The notes under the pieces are model-generated. The model had not been told where the DNA came from, searched no databases, and worked only from the letters and a program-made list of their open reading frames with translations. A DNA stretch of 64,000 nucleotides from Pirellulimonas nuda (GTDB lineage: Bacteria; Planctomycetota; Planctomycetia; Pirellulales; Lacipirellulaceae). Both the position numbers and the translations under genes were made by a program. Shown in pieces: positions 4,166-34,620 of the stretch (position 1 is the stretch's first letter; each line of letters opens with the position of its first letter). The stretch spans positions 620,001-684,000 of the forward strand of contig NZ_CP036291.1 in assembly GCF_007750855.1 (NCBI RefSeq), read 5' to 3'.

Positions 4166-4213
4166 GTTCGCGCGTCCTCTTTGGCTGATTGCTGAAAGCT
4201 GACCGCTACCCGC

Positions 4214-4654
4214 TCAAACCCCGTCGCGCTTCTCCATCTCTTCGATGTAGCGACGCAGACGCTCTACCTCGTCCGTCACCGCGCTGAGCCGCAGCATGTT
4301 CTCGACGCGTTTGAGCAGCTCGATCTTGTTGACCGGCTTGGAGAGGAAGTCGTCGGCGCCCGCCTCCACGGCGCGCTCGATGTCTCCCAGCTCGTTCAGC
4401 GCCGTGACCATCAGCACCATCACGCTGGGGAGCTCGCCGGAACCCTTGAGCTGCTTGCACACCTCAAACCCGCTGAGCCGCGGCATCATCACGTCCAACA
4501 GCACCAGGTTGGGCTTGAACTCGGCGGCCTTGTCGAGCGTCTGCTGCCCGTCCATGGCGATCTCGACGTCGATGTCGAGCCCCGACAGGTAGGCCTCCAT
4601 CAGCTCGACGTTGGTCTCGTTGTCGTCGGCGATCAGTACGCGGTGCTTGGGCAT
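4214..4654 (-). CDS. Single-domain response regulator (CheY-like)
   Basis: A 146-residue receiver domain starting MPKHRVLIADDNETNVE. Acidic DD of the phosphorylation pocket is at residues 9-10, the phospho-acceptor Asp lies in NLVLLDVMMPRLSG, the switch Thr in MVTALNE, and the conserved Lys in FLSKPV. The receiver is followed by a short coiled-coil tail (VTDEVERLRRYIEEMEKRD) and no output domain, so signalling is probably by protein contact or phosphotransfer. No histidine kinase is adjacent. A TTG start four codons upstream is possible, but the ATG at 4654 matches the usual start of the fold. Confidence 0.9.
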   Translation of the reverse strand: MPKHRVLIADDNETNVELMEAYLSGLDIDVEIAMDGQQTLDKAAEFKPNLVLLDVMMPRLSGFEVCKQLKGSGELPSVMVLMVTALNELGDIERAVEAGADDFLSKPVNKIELLKRVENMLRLSAVTDEVERLRRYIEEMEKRDGV

Positions 4655-11503: not shown

Positions 11504-13753
11504 TCAATCGAAATTGAACGTCTGCCAGAAGTACCGCGTGAGGCGTTCCCACAGGGTGCGCGGCGCGGTGTGGATCTTGGCCTGGCCTACCAGGCCGACG
11601 CGGAGCATGCCGGCCGGGCCGAGGTCGCCGCGCAGCGGCGCCTCGGCGAAGAAGTGGGGCTCCAGCGGCCGGGGGACCCCCGACTCGTCCGCCTGGGTGG
11701 CGAGCTTGCCCCCCGACAGGCTGCTGAGCCGCGGCGGCGTCTGCTCCATCGCTTCGCTCGCCTTGCGGGTGATCTTGCTGCGGTAGACCACGTCGGTTGA
11801 TTGGTCGAGCATGATCTCCACCGACTGGCCGATCAGCACCAGCTCGTTGTCGCTCTGGTTGATCGCGATCCGCGCCTCCAGCTTGGTGGGGTCGCCCACC
11901 TGGCAGAACGCGGCGCCCTGCTGCAGCACGGCGCCGGCGTTCTCGGCGTCGAACGGCGTGCCGATCCACGAGCCGAGCCCACGCGGGTCCTGGCCGCGGG
12001 CGTCCTTGATGGTCGGCGGGATCACCGTGCCGGCGATCGGCGCCTTGAGCACCAACCGCGCGGCGTCTTCAAGCTGCCCGGCCAGTTGCTCGCGCGCGGC
12101 GGCCAGCTGCTCGTTCACCTGGTTGATGCGGCTCGCGGCGCGGGGGTCGCCGAAGCTCATCGCTTCGAGCCCCTCGATCTGCGTCACCGCGGCGTCGACC
12201 TGCGCTTCCAGCTTGCCGATCTCTAGCTCGAGGTCGATGTTCCGCAGCCGCGCCAGCGGCTGGCCCGCCGCCACCCGGTCGCCCGGCTTCACCAGCAGCG
12301 CTTGCAGCACGCCCGGCGACGAGACGTACACGGTCTCCGCGTCGTCCAGCGCCACCTCGACGGGGCAGAACACGGCCGACGGGATCGGCGCCAGCAGCAC
12401 GCCCGCGATTGCCGCGGCGATCACCAGGGCCGAGACCACCATTCTCCAACGTTTCACTTTGTTCAGCCTTCCGGGGACCTTGAGGAACTTCCACAGTTTC
12501 ACCAGCGGCTGCCCGACCAGCCCCCACGCCGCGCTCAACGCGATCAATTGTCCGATCGGCTTGAGCCCGTACGGCTCGAACACCTGGTTCAAGAAGTACA
12601 GGATCGACAGCACCACCACCCAGCGATAGACGGCAGACGCCACCGTGTACAGGGCGAACAGCCCCTGGTGCTTCTTGGGCAGGAACGGGTCGTCCTGGGG
12701 CTCGAGGCCCAGGCAGAGCTGCCCCAATTTTCGAGACAGGATGCTGCTGGCCTTCTGCCGCAGGTTGGGGATCTCTAGCAGGTCGCTGAGGATGTAGTAG
12801 CCGTCGTACCGCAGCAGCGGGTTGGCGTTGAACATGATCGTGCTGACGGAGCTGACGAACATCACGTTCAGGCAGATGTTGTTCAGCAGCGTCGTGGGGT
12901 CGCTGAACCACCAGATGAACGTGCAGACCGAGGCCAGCACCACCTCAACGTACATGCCCGCCGCGCCGATCGCGGCGCGGTGCCAGCGGTTGGGCAGCAT
13001 CCAACTGTCGCTCACGTTGCAGTACAGGCAGGGCGTGAGCACCAGGAACATCACCCCCATCTCGTGGCACTCGCCGCCGAAGTGCTTGCAACTGAGCCCG
13101 TGGCCGAACTCGTGCAGCACCTTCGTGGTCCCCAGCACGCAGGCCAGCAGCAGCCAGTTCTGCACGGAGAAGAAGGTGTGGAAGTCGGGCAGGCGGGACT
13201 GGAAGGTGTCTAGCTGCACCAGGATCAGCGTGCCGGCAGCCGCCACCAGCATCAGGCACAGCACCAGCGCCGGGGTGGAGAAGAACCACCGCACCGGCGG
13301 CAGGCCGTAGAGGAAGTTGAGCAACCGCTCGGGGTCGAACCCCTTGAAGCGGACCGAGAGGATATTGGCGACCATCGCCATCCGCTCTTTGTTCTTCCGC
13401 TCGTCGTGCCGCGTCTTGAGCTGCAGGCCCTGCCCGCCGGCGTCGGTCAGCACCAGCCCGCTGCGGTGCAGCATGCCGATGAACTGCTGCAGCTCCTCGG
13501 TGCGGATGGTCTGCGGCGGGAACTCGGCCTCAAACCGATCGGCGATCTCTTCGAGACTGGACTCGCCATCGAGCATCTGCAGGATGGCGAACTCTTCTTC
13601 CTCGAAGCGGAAGTACTGCAGCGCCACGGGGTCCTTCACCACCCAGTAAACGCGCCCCTGATAACGGTTCCGCTTCGCCTCAAGATCAGGACGCACCCGT
13701 ATCGGCAGCGCGCGGCTGGTGGAGGAGACGAGGCTGGAAGCGAGCGTGGCCAT
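11504..13753 (-). CDS. PqqD-like / M50 site-2-type protease / HlyD-like fusion membrane protein
   Basis: A 749-residue fusion. Residues ~18-105 form a PqqD/RRE-like winged-helix domain (VRPDLEAKRNRYQGRVYWVV, then FAILQMLDGESSLEEIADRF). Residues ~150-440 are a multi-spanning M50 metalloprotease core with HEFGH (214-218) and a downstream NPLLRYDGYY motif, the equivalent of the S2P 'DG' ligand site. After a further transmembrane helix (LVIAAAIAGVLLAPIPSAVF) comes a biotinyl-lipoyl/HlyD-like part with a coiled coil. It lies in a minus-strand cluster with an HlyD adaptor and a GAF-HlyD protein. RRE domains bind peptides in RiPP pathways, so peptide processing or export is a reasonable inference, but no precursor or ABC transporter is visible. 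Confidence 0.85.
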   Translation of the reverse strand: MATLASSLVSSTSRALPIRVRPDLEAKRNRYQGRVYWVVKDPVALQYFRFEEEEFAILQMLDGESSLEEIADRFEAEFPPQTIRTEELQQFIGMLHRSGLVLTDAGGQGLQLKTRHDERKNKERMAMVANILSVRFKGFDPERLLNFLYGLPPVRWFFSTPALVLCLMLVAAAGTLILVQLDTFQSRLPDFHTFFSVQNWLLLACVLGTTKVLHEFGHGLSCKHFGGECHEMGVMFLVLTPCLYCNVSDSWMLPNRWHRAAIGAAGMYVEVVLASVCTFIWWFSDPTTLLNNICLNVMFVSSVSTIMFNANPLLRYDGYYILSDLLEIPNLRQKASSILSRKLGQLCLGLEPQDDPFLPKKHQGLFALYTVASAVYRWVVVLSILYFLNQVFEPYGLKPIGQLIALSAAWGLVGQPLVKLWKFLKVPGRLNKVKRWRMVVSALVIAAAIAGVLLAPIPSAVFCPVEVALDDAETVYVSSPGVLQALLVKPGDRVAAGQPLARLRNIDLELEIGKLEAQVDAAVTQIEGLEAMSFGDPRAASRINQVNEQLAAAREQLAGQLEDAARLVLKAPIAGTVIPPTIKDARGQDPRGLGSWIGTPFDAENAGAVLQQGAAFCQVGDPTKLEARIAINQSDNELVLIGQSVEIMLDQSTDVVYRSKITRKASEAMEQTPPRLSSLSGGKLATQADESGVPRPLEPHFFAEAPLRGDLGPAGMLRVGLVGQAKIHTAPRTLWERLTRYFWQTFNFD

Positions 13754-13760
13754 AGGGTCG

Positions 13761-13826
13761 GGGGAGGCGCGGCTACGCCGCGGGGGCTGGGGGCAGCGCG
13801 GCTTTGCCGCGGGGGCTGGGGGACGC
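13761..13826. repeat. G-rich hairpin array, left flank of the four-helix-bundle gene
   Basis: Two units, each a short hairpin (GCGGC-TAC-GCCGC and GCGGC-TTT-GCCGC) followed by GGGGGCTGGGGG, end with TGGGGGACGC at 13817-13826, which touches the stop codon of the gene. The inverted counterpart lies at 14270-14345. The pair brackets the four-helix-bundle gene and suggests a mobile unit. A related empty copy is at 29171-29258. Confidence 0.7.
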
Positions 13827-14203
13827 TAGGGGGCGAGGTTTCGTTTTAGGGCCGTCGCTAGGGCACGTAGCTGTTTTCCTAGTCCTGCGAGGTCGCTGAG
13901 CAGCGTTTGTGAGTTGTCCCTGCAGAGATACTTCAGCTCCTCTGCGATCAAGACTTGGGTTTCAACTTCCGCCAGAGAGCCAAGTGCGTACGAGACGTGA
14001 TGAAGGTATTCCTTCGTCGATTGTCGGGCGTGTCCCTCAGCGATGTTAGAAGGGATCGACGTAGCGGCCCGACGTAGTTGGCTGACCAACCCGAAGCGTT
14101 CGTCGTCGGGGAATATTCTGGTCAGTTCGTAAACGCGGAGCGTCACCCGCATCCCCGACTTCCAAACCTCAAGGTCCTGGTAGCTGCGTATCGGGTCTGA
14201 CAT
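13826..14203 (-). CDS. Four-helix-bundle protein (23S rRNA intervening-sequence protein family)
   Basis: A 125-residue protein of the IVP / 'four helix bundle' family, with the typical start YQDLEVWKSGMRVTLRVYEL and the signature FGLVSQLRRAATSIPSNIAEG. The family was first seen encoded inside 23S rRNA intervening sequences of Leptospira; relatives (Avd) are accessory proteins of diversity-generating retroelements. Molecular function in free-standing genes is unknown. Here the gene sits alone between inverted G-rich hairpin arrays and separates two genes of the HlyD cluster, which suggests that it was inserted there. No reverse transcriptase or variable repeat is nearby. Confidence 0.9.
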   Translation of the reverse strand: MSDPIRSYQDLEVWKSGMRVTLRVYELTRIFPDDERFGLVSQLRRAATSIPSNIAEGHARQSTKEYLHHVSYALGSLAEVETQVLIAEELKYLCRDNSQTLLSDLAGLGKQLRALATALKRNLAP

Positions 14204-14269
14204 GCACCAAAGCCTCAGTTAGCGTCAACTGCGCCCATCGCTCATCGGCCCTAGTTTGACGCCGACTCC

Positions 14270-14350
14270 CGCTTGCGCGTCCCCCAGCCCCCGCGGCGCA
14301 GCCGCGCTGCCCCTAGCCCCCAGTCCCCCGCGGCGCAGCCGCGCTGCTGA
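14270..14350. repeat. C-rich hairpin array, right flank of the four-helix-bundle gene
   Basis: CGCTTGCGCGTCCCCCA at 14270-14286 is followed by two hairpin units, GCGGC-GCA-GCCGC, each preceded by CCCCC-type runs. This is the inverted counterpart of 13761-13826. The array runs into the 3' end of the HlyD gene (stop 14313), so that protein's last residues (AAAPRGTGG) are encoded by repeat DNA. Confidence 0.7.
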
Positions 14351-15284
14351 TGCCGCCGGTGCCTAAGTGAATGGTCATCTTCGCCGGCAGCCTCGAGAGG
14401 ATCAGCCAGCGGCCGTCTTCTTGGCGGTTGGCGATCTCGGCACGCACCAGGTAGCGCGAGCCCTTGCCGTCGGTGCCGGCGATGGGGTCGATGTTCACGA
14501 TCCGGCCCGCGGTGGGGATGGTGCGGCCCGGGCCTACGTTGACCTCAACGGTCACCTCGCAGCCGTCGATCTGCGACGGCGAGTAGTCGTCCAGGCGGAC
14601 GTAGCCGTCTACCTGCAGGGTGTCGAGCTTGATCACGCGGACGATGGGGTCCCCGGGCGACACCCACTCGTTCTGATGCCGCAGCACCTCCAGCACCACG
14701 CCGTCGAACGGGGCGAAGATGGTCCGCTTGTCTACGGCGATCTGCGCCAGCTCCAGCTCGGCCTTCTTGACCCAGTACTCGTGCCCGGCCAGCGTGCGGT
14801 CGTGCTGCGCCTTCTCGATCGCCAGCTCCGACCGCTTGACGTTCAGTTCCGCGGTGCGGACCTCGTCGTTCGTGACCGCTTGCAGGTCTTTGTTCGCGTT
14901 CCGGATCTCCTTCAGGGCCGACTTGGCGTGTTCAAGCTGCGCCCGGGCGAACCGTTCTTCGATGTCGTCCTTCCAGCGCTGCAGGGCGCTTTCTACCGCG
15001 TACTTGGCGGCGTTGCGTTGGGCCTCGACCTCACGGGCGTCGACCCGCGCGATCACGTCCTCCGAGCGGATCACCGACCCTTGCTTCACCGCCAGGTGCG
15101 TCAGCACGCCGGCGTCGCTGGCGGGGATGCGGATGTCTTCGACCAGCCCGATGATGCACCGCTCGATCACCGGGTCGCCGGCCGGCCCGGCGGCGGCAGG
15201 GGGGGCGTCGGCCGGCAACTGGAACTGCTGCGCAAGGGCAGGCGCCGCCAACGTGATCAGACCAATCAGCAATAGGGGCTTCAT
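14313..15284 (-). CDS. HlyD-family periplasmic adaptor protein
   Basis: A 323-residue secreted protein with a signal peptide (MKPLLLIGLITLAAPALA). It has the HlyD/membrane-fusion layout: a split lipoyl domain (DAGVLTHLAVKQGSVIRSEDVIARVD, later IFAPFDGVVLEVLRHQNEWVSPGDPIVRV), a long coiled coil between the halves (about residues 85-190), and a beta-barrel region. The start at 15284 was chosen for the signal peptide; upstream frame sequence belongs to a palindrome. It lies between the PqqD-M50-HlyD and GAF-HlyD genes, so the three probably form one envelope complex. The extreme C-terminus comes from a hairpin repeat. Confidence 0.85.
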   Translation of the reverse strand: MKPLLLIGLITLAAPALAQQFQLPADAPPAAAGPAGDPVIERCIIGLVEDIRIPASDAGVLTHLAVKQGSVIRSEDVIARVDAREVEAQRNAAKYAVESALQRWKDDIEERFARAQLEHAKSALKEIRNANKDLQAVTNDEVRTAELNVKRSELAIEKAQHDRTLAGHEYWVKKAELELAQIAVDKRTIFAPFDGVVLEVLRHQNEWVSPGDPIVRVIKLDTLQVDGYVRLDDYSPSQIDGCEVTVEVNVGPGRTIPTAGRIVNIDPIAGTDGKGSRYLVRAEIANRQEDGRWLILSRLPAKMTIHLGTGGISSAAAPRGTGG

Positions 15285-15319
15285 CGACAACCGCCGGTTG
15301 AGGGAAACTCGCGACGCAG

Positions 15320-15545
15320 TTAACCACAGAGTCATAGAGAGCACGGAGACGGACGTTGGCCACGAAAAGGCACAAAAAGGCACAAAGGCAAAATGACCAA
15401 GGACTAAGCCTCAATGACTAATTTCAAGAGACGGTGGTTGAATCTTTGGTCATTAGAAATTGGCTATTTGCAGGCGCTTTCTTTGTGCTTTTTCGCGCCT
15501 TTTCGTGGCAATCCTCCGTCGTTTTCTCCGTGGCTCAGTGGTTAA
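15320..15545. repeat. 226-bp nested palindrome (TTAACCAC ends, GGCACAAA arms)
   Basis: Outer ends TTAACCAC (15320-15327) and GTGGTTAA (15538-15545); next GAGCACGGAGA against TCTCCGTGGCTC; then GCCACGAAAAGGC...CACAAAG against its complement; innermost AATGACCAA against TTGGTCATT. The same outer and inner motifs occur at 670-868, and the GGCACAAA arms recur at 40004-40145. It fills the gap between the HlyD and GAF-HlyD genes. It contains no gene. Confidence 0.8.
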
Positions 15546-21036: not shown

Positions 21037-22392
21037 ATGCCCAGCCCGCTCGTTCAAACCCAAATCGCCGGCCACTCCATCCCGGAGCTGGCGGCCCAGT
21101 ACAGCACGCCGCTGTACGTCTACGACGCCCAGACGATCGTCCAGCGGATCGCGGAGCTGAAGCGGTTCGACGTGATCCGCTTCGCCCAGAAGGCCTGCTC
21201 GAACATCGCGGTTCTCGACCTGATGCGCCGCCACGGCGTGCTGGTCGACGCGGTCAGCTCCGGTGAAGTCGCCCGCGCAGTCGCGGCCGGCTTTAAGCTG
21301 GGTCCGGGCGAGCCGGCCCAAGTGGTGTATACGGCCGATATTTTCGACCGCGAGTCGCTCGACTTGGTGATCAACCAAGGGGTGCCGGTCAACTGCGGCT
21401 CGCCCGACATGCTCGACCAGTACGGCGCCCGTTCGGCCGAACTGGGCAAGGCGCCGCTGGGGGTGACGCTCCGCGTGAACCCCGGCTTCGGCCACGGCCA
21501 CAGCCAAAAGACCAACACCGGCGGCGAGCAGAGCAAGCACGGCATCTGGCACACCGACATCGCGGATTGCAAGCAGCGCGCCGGCCGGCACGGCCTGTCG
21601 ATCACCGGCCTGCACATGCACATCGGCTCCGGGACCGACCTAGAGCACCTGGGCCAGGTGTGCGGGGCTTTAGAAAAAACGGCGCTGGAGATCGGCCCGT
21701 CGATCCACTCCATCAGCGCCGGCGGGGGCATCAGCACGCCCTACCGCGAGGGGGACGTCCGCGCCGACCTGTCGGGCTACTTCGAGCTGTGGGACGCCGC
21801 ACGCCGCCGGCTCGCCGAGGCTTTCGGCCACGCAGTGAGCCTGGAGATCGAGCCGGGCCGCTACCTCGCCGCGGAGTCGGGCTGGCTGATCTCCGAGGTC
21901 CGGGCCGTGAAGCAGCAGGGAAACAACCTCTTTTACTTGGTCGACGCCGGCTTCAACAACCTGGCCCGCCCCATCCTGTACGGCGCGTACCACCCGATGA
22001 CCATCTGTCCGGGAGAGGGGGGCGAGGCGAGCGGCGAGGGGCGAGCATCCACGGGCGAGCCGTCGGCGCCCCGTCTCAGCAACCACACCGACGGAGCAAC
22101 CCACGGCCACCCCACCCAAAAAGTAGTCGTCGGCGGCCCCCTGTGCGAATCGGGCGACATCTTCACGCAGGACGAAGGGGGCTTCGTCAACCAGCGCGAA
22201 CTGCCCGAGGCCCGCGTCGGCGACTTCTTGGTGATCGGCTGCGCCGGCGCCTACGGCGCGGTGATGGGGAGCAACTACAACTCCAAGCCGCTGGCCGCCG
22301 AGGTGCTGATCGAGGAGGGCAAGGCCCACCTGGTCCGCGAGCGGCAGACAAGCGACGACCTGCTGCGTGGCGAAAAGCTGGTTTCATATTAG
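21037..22392 (+). CDS. lysA: Diaminopimelate decarboxylase
   Basis: A 451-residue fold-III PLP decarboxylase that converts meso-diaminopimelate to L-lysine. The PLP lysine lies in VIRFAQKACSNIAVL; the glycine-rich and substrate motifs HMHIGSGTD, SAGGGISTPY, EIEPGRYLAAESG and PLCESGDIF are all present, as is the C-terminal YGAVMGSNYNSKP. Between AYHPMTICPG and VVVGGPLCESGD there is an unusual hydrophilic stretch of about 35-40 residues rich in Gly, Ser and Pro (about 22015-22125), encoded in part by repeat DNA. It is probably tolerated in a surface loop. The start at 21037 gives the usual N-terminus. Confidence 0.95.
   Translation: MPSPLVQTQIAGHSIPELAAQYSTPLYVYDAQTIVQRIAELKRFDVIRFAQKACSNIAVLDLMRRHGVLVDAVSSGEVARAVAAGFKLGPGEPAQVVYTADIFDRESLDLVINQGVPVNCGSPDMLDQYGARSAELGKAPLGVTLRVNPGFGHGHSQKTNTGGEQSKHGIWHTDIADCKQRAGRHGLSITGLHMHIGSGTDLEHLGQVCGALEKTALEIGPSIHSISAGGGISTPYREGDVRADLSGYFELWDAARRRLAEAFGHAVSLEIEPGRYLAAESGWLISEVRAVKQQGNNLFYLVDAGFNNLARPILYGAYHPMTICPGEGGEASGEGRASTGEPSAPRLSNHTDGATHGHPTQKVVVGGPLCESGDIFTQDEGGFVNQRELPEARVGDFLVIGCAGAYGAVMGSNYNSKPLAAEVLIEEGKAHLVRERQTSDDLLRGEKLVSY
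22021..22068. repeat. Repeat sequence inside lysA
   Basis: GGCGAGCCGTCGGCG (22054-22068) is the exact complement of a 15-base core of the intergenic hairpin at 2303-2341. It is preceded by reiterated GCGAG motifs (22021-22045). The segment is in frame, adds residues such as GEPSAPR, and lies within the extra loop of LysA. Confidence 0.6.
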
Positions 22393-28417: not shown

Positions 28418-28490
28418 CTAGGCGATTGCTGTTTCCCTAATGCCTAACGACTAACTCCTAAAACCTAAAACCTCTTCCCCCGAGCTGCAC

Positions 28491-29095: not shown

Positions 29096-29352
29096 GGGGT
29101 GTGGTCGCTGACGCGACCGGGGTGTGTGGCCTTGCGGCCACGGGGTGTATTCGCCTGCGGCGGATGGGGTTGGGGGGCGCGCAAGCGATGCAACGACCGG
29201 GCACGACCGCTACCGCCGACTTGTGACACGCGTTTCCCCTCCGCCTGCGCGTCCCCCAACCCCATCCGCCGCAGGCGGATAACCCCCGTCTGCGAAGCGA
29301 ACACTCCCCGTCCGCGCAAGCGGACCCACCCCCGCGGCGAAGCCGCACTGCT
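29096..29352. repeat. Mirror-image array of hairpins with constant GGGGTGT spacers
   Basis: On the left, GGGGTGT is followed three times by different short hairpins: GGTCGC-TGAC-GCGACC, GTGGCC-TTGC-GGCCAC and ATTCGCC-TGC-GGCGGAT. On the right, the mirrored order of hairpins and CCCC spacers follows (29259-29350). The middle part is bounded by TGGGGGGCGCGCAAGCG (29171-29187) and CGCCTGCGCGTCCCCCA (29242-29258), the same ends as the four-helix-bundle unit at 13817-14286. No gene is present. The array fills the gap between lemA and the M48 gene. Confidence 0.7.
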
Positions 29353-33351: not shown

Positions 33352-33409
33352 AATGTCCATTCATCATTTATCACTCATCATTCATCACTCTCCGCCACAC
33401 CCCTCCCCG

Positions 33410-34458: not shown

Positions 34459-34545
34459 GGCGGCAGCTCTGCGGGGGGAAGAATTGGGGGGATAGCGGAA
34501 TTGTAACGCTACCGGGGGGCCGTGTGGCAAGGTAGGCTAAAAAAG

Positions 34546-34620
34546 GCTGTCAGCGATCAGCGGTCAGCCGTCAGCTAGGGCGGCGAGAGCTGACCGCTGA
34601 AAGCTGATCGCTGACAGCTT
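34546..34620. repeat. Palindrome of CAGCGATCAGCGGTCAGC type
   Basis: CTGTCAGCGATCAGCGGTCAGC (in part) pairs with GCTGACCGCTGAAAGCTGATCGCTGACAG (in part) across a loop of about 20 bases. A half copy of the same text (GCTGATTGCTGAAAGCTGACCGCT) is at about 4180-4204. It lies between two divergent genes, so it would be in the promoter region of the PII gene. Confidence 0.65.

What the first reader, a model, noticed from the sequence alone, without database searches (positions are those of the whole stretch)
13761..14350. Four-helix-bundle gene framed by inverted hairpin arrays, with a gene-less relative elsewhere
The IVP-type gene is bracketed by TGGGGGACGC (13817) and CGCTTGCGCGTCCCCCA (14270) with two G-rich hairpin units outside on each side. 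The locus 29171-29258 has nearly the same ends and hairpin flanks but no gene. Together this looks like a mobile palindromic unit with an IVP-type protein as autonomous partner, like RAYT proteins with REP sequences. It interrupts a conserved gene cluster.
Basis: partly seen in the sequence, partly recalled or inferred. Interest (0 to 1): 0.72.

Follow-up and report, generated by a model that had tools for sequence, protein, structure and literature searches.

The report
IVP genes bracketed by heptad arrays
Across many bacterial phyla, genes of one small helical-bundle protein family sit between two mirror-image arrays of 7-letter repeats, in the gaps between genes of operons; they look like minimal mobile cassettes with gene-less copies, a link I did not find in the papers I could search.

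Summary
The window gene is a 23S_rRNA_IVP (PF05635) four-helix-bundle gene between inverted arms; gene-less relatives exist (five in this genome with the same ends). The GC-rich hairpins are only this copy's version. All six IVP loci of the genome sit between inverted arrays of short repeats, each copy with its own 7-nt unit. In 17 genomes of the family 54 of 64 IVP genes have such arms versus 22 of 910 control ORFs (P 4e-60); across many phyla 61 of 77 versus 11 of 449 (P 6e-53). The arms fill operon gaps from stop codon to next ATG. Sister genomes show empty sites, and one pair with the same arms with and without the gene. Arm sequence follows the protein clade across genera at unrelated sites (0 of 2000 permutations). 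The known heptamers of Xanthomonas (GGGAATC) and Nostoc (GGGGAGT-type) bracket IVP genes. Best reading: a minimal mobile cassette with gene-less derivatives, REPIN/RAYT-like in logic but with an unrelated protein. How it moves is unknown; a G-U wobble test gave no support for selection on a sense-RNA stem. A second family, GxxExxY, shows the same layout with 8-10-nt spacing (27 of 28).

The parts
13826..14203 (-). IVP (four-helix bundle) gene, 125 aa; stop codon abuts the 3' arm
   Evidence: PF05635 E 5.7e-36, TIGR02436 E 1.4e-33; nearest solved structure 2GSC/XCC0516
13767..13826 (-). 3' arm (C-rich on the gene strand): two palindromes with heptad linkers, ending a few nt before the M50 gene start at 13753
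14277..14344 (-). 5' arm (G-rich on the gene strand); supplies the last codons and stop of the HlyD reading frame
29101..29184 (.). left arm of the gene-less relative
29246..29340 (.). right arm of the gene-less relative
34541..34619 (.). gene-less inverted heptad pair (GTCAGCG type, loop 11 nt), same heptad type as the sucC-sucD IVP element of this genome
   Evidence: own-genome match p 0.12 for this copy alone
11504..13753 (-). downstream host gene (M50/HlyD)
14313..15383 (-). upstream host gene (HlyD); its 3' end runs into the 5' arm

Best explanation
The unit is a minimal mobile cassette: inverted heptad array - IVP gene - inverted heptad array. It lies in gaps of operons, mostly in the host reading direction. 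SHOWN: anatomy, enrichment, IVP as by far the main gene inside such arms, empty sites, re-use of the same junction by different cassettes, gene-less derivatives, arm type following protein clade, matching drift of the two arms. INFERRED: the IVP protein (a pentamer in the solved relative, related to Avd of diversity-generating retroelements) binds its own heptad arrays, and the unit is copied or moved at DNA level with enzymes supplied in trans; loss of the gene leaves MITE-like arms and later lone arrays. The rRNA IVS of Coxiella, with the same protein family and three GACAGAT heptamers before the ORF, would be a special case that sits in rRNA.
For: Arms at 54/64 IVP genes vs 22/910 control ORFs in 17 genomes and 61/77 vs 11/449 across phyla. 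Period 7 or 14 in 46/54 arms; 5' arm starts near the upstream stop, 3' arm ends near the next ATG; both neighbours codirectional in 46/64 vs 294/791 (P 9e-8). Empty sites: gaps of 454 vs 3 nt (L133/L318), 471 vs 22, 530 vs 23, 471 vs 24, 555 vs 58; same arms with and without the gene: L144/L311. Arm similarity tracks protein similarity across genera with no shared neighbour (rho 0.20, 0/2000 permutations). Gene-less pairs match own-genome IVP arms (Fisher 1.5e-16, 9/23 individually). 39 of 41 long-loop heptad pairs hold an IVP gene (most of these loci were fetched because they hold one). Arms of one element match each other better than those of its orthologues: 12 Xanthomonad accB-accC loci, P 0.0002. 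dN/dS 0.04-0.09 for the two measurable pairs.
Against: No transposition event was observed and no target-site duplication seen. The protein has no recognised catalytic motif. Some elements persist at one site over many species (accB-accC in Xanthomonadaceae), as a domesticated cassette would. 10 of 64 family loci score below threshold. No phage copy found (one query). Sister genomes are 74-90% identical at the flanks, so insertion and loss cannot be told apart at every site.
Confidence: 0.62

Rival explanations
1. A resident regulatory or RNA-processing cassette: the arms form an RNA stem in the operon mRNA (cut by RNase III as in rRNA IVS) and tune the neighbours; spread is by vertical descent and ordinary transfer.
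For: Same-strand bias, stop-to-ATG placement, strong RNA fold of the window element (z -7.4), long retention at accB-accC, IVS excision by RNase III in Coxiella (PMC4990558).
Against: No excess of G-U wobble over A-C mismatches in the sense transcript (family 59 vs 88; other sets about even); the same junction carries different cassettes or none in sister genomes.
Confidence: 0.2
2. The heptad arrays are independent elements and landing pads; IVP genes are inserted into them by another mechanism.
For: Gene-less pairs are common (23 short-loop pairs in 2.0 Mb); L144/L311 share arms with and without the gene.
Against: Arm type follows protein clade across genera and sites; clean sites differ by arms and gene together (L133/L318).
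Confidence: 0.12
3. Chance: IVP genes happen to lie in repeat-rich gaps.
For: About 10 gene-less pairs in 864 kb of this genome.
Against: Fisher P 4e-60 and 6e-53; mismatched left/right flanks only 3.6%.
Confidence: 0.01
4. An RNA-mediated retroelement: IVP works with a reverse transcriptase in trans, like Avd in DGRs.
For: Avd kinship (PMC10053308).
Confidence: 0.05

Closest known systems
REPIN / RAYT (TnpA_REP) systems
   Same: Gene-bearing and more numerous gene-less copies; repeats cognate to the resident protein; intergenic
   Different: Protein is PF05635, not a Y1 transposase; ends are 7-nt arrays; cassette sits stop-to-ATG in operons
rRNA intervening sequences (IVS) with IVP/S23p ORF (Leptospira, Coxiella)
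   Same: Same protein family, inverted-repeat stem, heptamers GACAGAT before the ORF in Coxiella (PMC4990558)
   Different: These lie in protein operons, not in rRNA; excision from RNA not tested
Heptamer repeats of Xanthomonas and Nostoc (PMC4692102) and TAACTGA repeats of Beggiatoaceae (PMC4679880)
   Same: 7-nt units, mostly between genes; 70-75 inverted pairs per Xanthomonas genome; TAACTGA arrays end near start codons
   Different: Neither paper mentions IVP; the second asks for an unknown repeat-binding protein
Avd of diversity-generating retroelements
   Same: Related four-helix-bundle family (weak profile match)
   Different: No RT or template/variable repeat was seen beside the window gene

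Membership tests
23S_rRNA_IVP (PF05635) proteins | Match over curated cut-off | tested here: met
   123.4 bits vs 33.8
rRNA IVS elements | Located inside an rRNA gene | tested here: not met
   Between HlyD and M50 coding genes
rRNA IVS elements | Excised from RNA by RNase III | not testable with these tools
   Arms can fold; no RNA data
REPIN/RAYT | Y1 (PF01797) transposase in the element | tested here: not met
   Only PF05635 and a sub-cut-off bAvd match in the gene
REPIN/RAYT | Gene-less copies share ends with the gene-bearing copy of the same genome | tested here: met
Classical transposon / MITE | Transposase in the autonomous copy | tested here: not met
   No transposase domain in the only gene of the unit
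Classical transposon / MITE | Target-site duplication | tested here: inconclusive
   None seen by eye in the printed junctions; flanks 74-90% identical
Diversity-generating retroelement accessory (Avd) | NCBIfam DivGenRetAVD over cut-off | tested here: not met
   25.7 bits vs 80

The most novel reading that the evidence does not exclude
A new bacteria-wide class of single-gene mobile cassettes without a transposase, defined by inverted short-tandem arrays cognate to the resident protein, with at least two unrelated resident families (IVP with heptads; GxxExxY PD-(D/E)XK-like proteins with 8-10-nt spacing). It would explain the heptamer repeats of Xanthomonas and Nostoc, perhaps also the TAACTGA repeats, as gene-less or lone-arm forms.
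Probability: 0.45. Interest if true: 0.95.

Novelty: new variant of a known kind. Interest (0 to 1): 0.86.

Why it matters
It gives a genomic context to a widespread family of unknown function, links separately described heptamer-repeat families to a candidate partner protein, and recasts rRNA intervening sequences as one case of a larger class. The TAACTGA paper (PMC4679880) raised a repeat-binding protein as a possible mobile factor; IVP is a concrete candidate that can be tested at the bench. Cassettes in gaps of core operons (sucC-sucD, next to rpoC, accB-accC) also bear on how operons change.

Tried and rejected
GC-rich hairpins as the general end: rejected, only this copy's version. Chance: rejected by the controls. 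RNA-stem selection by wobble counts: not supported. RT dependence: not required for upkeep. Y1 transposase count correlates weakly with IVP count but genome size correlates more. Phage carriage: no hit with one query. Own-genus comparison impossible, only one genome held. rRNA IVS arms were not examined directly; the Coxiella heptamers are taken from PMC4990558. bioRxiv is not held and the library holds only open-licence papers, so priority cannot be settled.

Full report
What was asked.

The window copy. The gene at 13826-14203 (-) belongs to PF05635; the nearest solved chain is 2GSC (XCC0516 of X. campestris, E 2.8e-42), described as a homopentamer of four-helix bundles (PMC4990558). Its arms at 13767-13826 and 14277-14344 fill the gap between M50 and HlyD; HlyD now ends inside the arm. 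The exact end occurs in 12 places: one with the gene, five gene-less pairs, five lone ends, one in a coding gene.

The general feature. This genome has six PF05635 loci. All six lie between inverted short-repeat arrays, each with a different unit: GGGGGCT (plus palindromes), GAGGGGC, GATGATA/GAGGTTA, GCTTTCA/GCGGTCA, GTGAGTG, ATTGCAA. The last is a broken copy beside rpoC. Another sits between sucC and sucD; by neighbour sequence the rest include what look like kor and tsf/pyrH operons (gene names from reading the sequences, not formally annotated).

Statistics. In 64 loci of 17 genomes of the same family, the flank-to-flank inverted score reaches 14 in 54 loci, in 22 of 910 other ORFs in the same stretches, and in 3.6% of 4032 mismatched left/right flanks. 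In 77 loci from many phyla (Acidobacteria, Bacteroidota, Bacillota, Proteobacteria, Chloroflexi, Gemmatimonadota, Omnitrophota and others, by record title) it is 61, against 11 of 449 controls. Period is 7 or 14 in 46 of 54 arms; the 5' arm begins within a few nt of the upstream stop, the 3' arm ends a few nt before the next ATG; both neighbours are codirectional in 46/64 against 294/791. Heptads share a weak register G-N-R-R-Y-Y-R (2.05 bits vs 1.54-1.59 permuted).

Exclusivity. In 2.0 Mb, 41 inverted heptad pairs have loops over 200 nt; 39 hold an IVP gene. These loci were largely chosen around IVP genes, so the figure is inflated; the unselected 864-kb sample had only short-loop pairs.

Movement. 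Sister genomes give gaps of 3, 22, 23, 24 and 58 nt where the other has 454-555 nt; L144/L311 share AATGGGG-type arms with and without the gene; other junctions carry gene-less arms with different heptads. No duplication of target bases was noticed by eye. Junctions are re-used: argG-permease in several genera, HlyD-M50 in two genomes with IVPs of different clades.

Cognate link. Across genera, arm similarity rises with protein similarity; without pairs that share a homologous neighbour rho is 0.20 (0/2000 within-genome permutations), and the share of similar arms goes from 0.9% to 62%. Gene-less pairs match own-genome IVP arms. In 12 Xanthomonad accB-accC loci the heptads differ between species but the two arms of each element agree (P 0.0002); 15 orthologue pairs of the window's family show the same more weakly (P 0.012). 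The protein is under purifying selection where it can be measured.

Known repeats. IVP genes in the family of L235 (Lysobacteraceae) include ones bracketed by GGGAATC/GGGATTC arrays, the heptamer of Rehm et al. (PMC4692102), whose 70-75 inverted pairs per genome resemble the gene-less pairs here. Five of five cyanobacterial plasmid IVP genes have inverted arms, one GGGGAGT-like. TAACTGA repeats end near start codons in Beggiatoaceae (PMC4679880); a link to IVP there was not tested.

Mechanism. RNA pairing was tested: under selection for a sense-RNA stem, G-U should exceed A-C mismatches. It does not (59 vs 88, 91 vs 103, 24 vs 26). This leans toward a DNA-level role but does not prove it. Reverse transcriptase is undetected in 14 IVP-bearing relatives, some of them incomplete genomes.

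A second family. Two control ORFs with arms were GxxExxY-like genes. In 28 readable PF13366 loci of the same family, 27 have inverted arms, of the CACGGAG/CGCCAAGG kind with 8-10-nt spacing. Presence of the two families is associated across the 43 genomes (Fisher P 0.006), which genome completeness may explain. No matched control ORFs were scored for this set; the earlier control rate is about 2.4%.

Literature. Nine searches of PMC found no paper joining IVP to heptad arrays. That rRNA IVSs may be mobile with the ORF as helper was proposed by Ralph and McClelland 1993, as cited in PMC4990558.

Verdict. The anatomy, its spread and the link between arms and protein are well supported. Mobility is the best reading, at about 0.6. 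The way it moves is open.

Noticed in passing
L376-L404 (28 readable loci); also L127:6212-6590, L132:12238-12637: GxxExxY (PF13366) genes bracketed by inverted arrays such as ACCACGGAGGCACGGAG with 8-10-nt spacing, 27 of 28.
   Followed up: partly
L104:7084-7639: Small Y1-like gene with REP-like ends (GGAGCCGGAAGCGTCAGCGCCCGGAG), a probable true RAYT/REP pair in the same genome.
   Followed up: no
L312, L317, L321, L322: Gene-less inverted CACAGAGG/CACGAAGG or GCGGATTT arrays at operon junctions, probably gene-less forms of the GxxExxY type.
   Followed up: no
window 4184-4214, 22011-22051, 28433-28479, 33356-33395: Lone heptad arrays without an inverted partner within 700 nt.
   Followed up: no
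L357, L368-L371, L374 (Xanthomonad accB-accC): The IVP reading frame appears to start and end inside the arms, so heptads would encode its termini.
   Followed up: partly
G031: 20 PF05635 matches in one genome, mostly weaker-scoring and many near contig ends.
   Followed up: no
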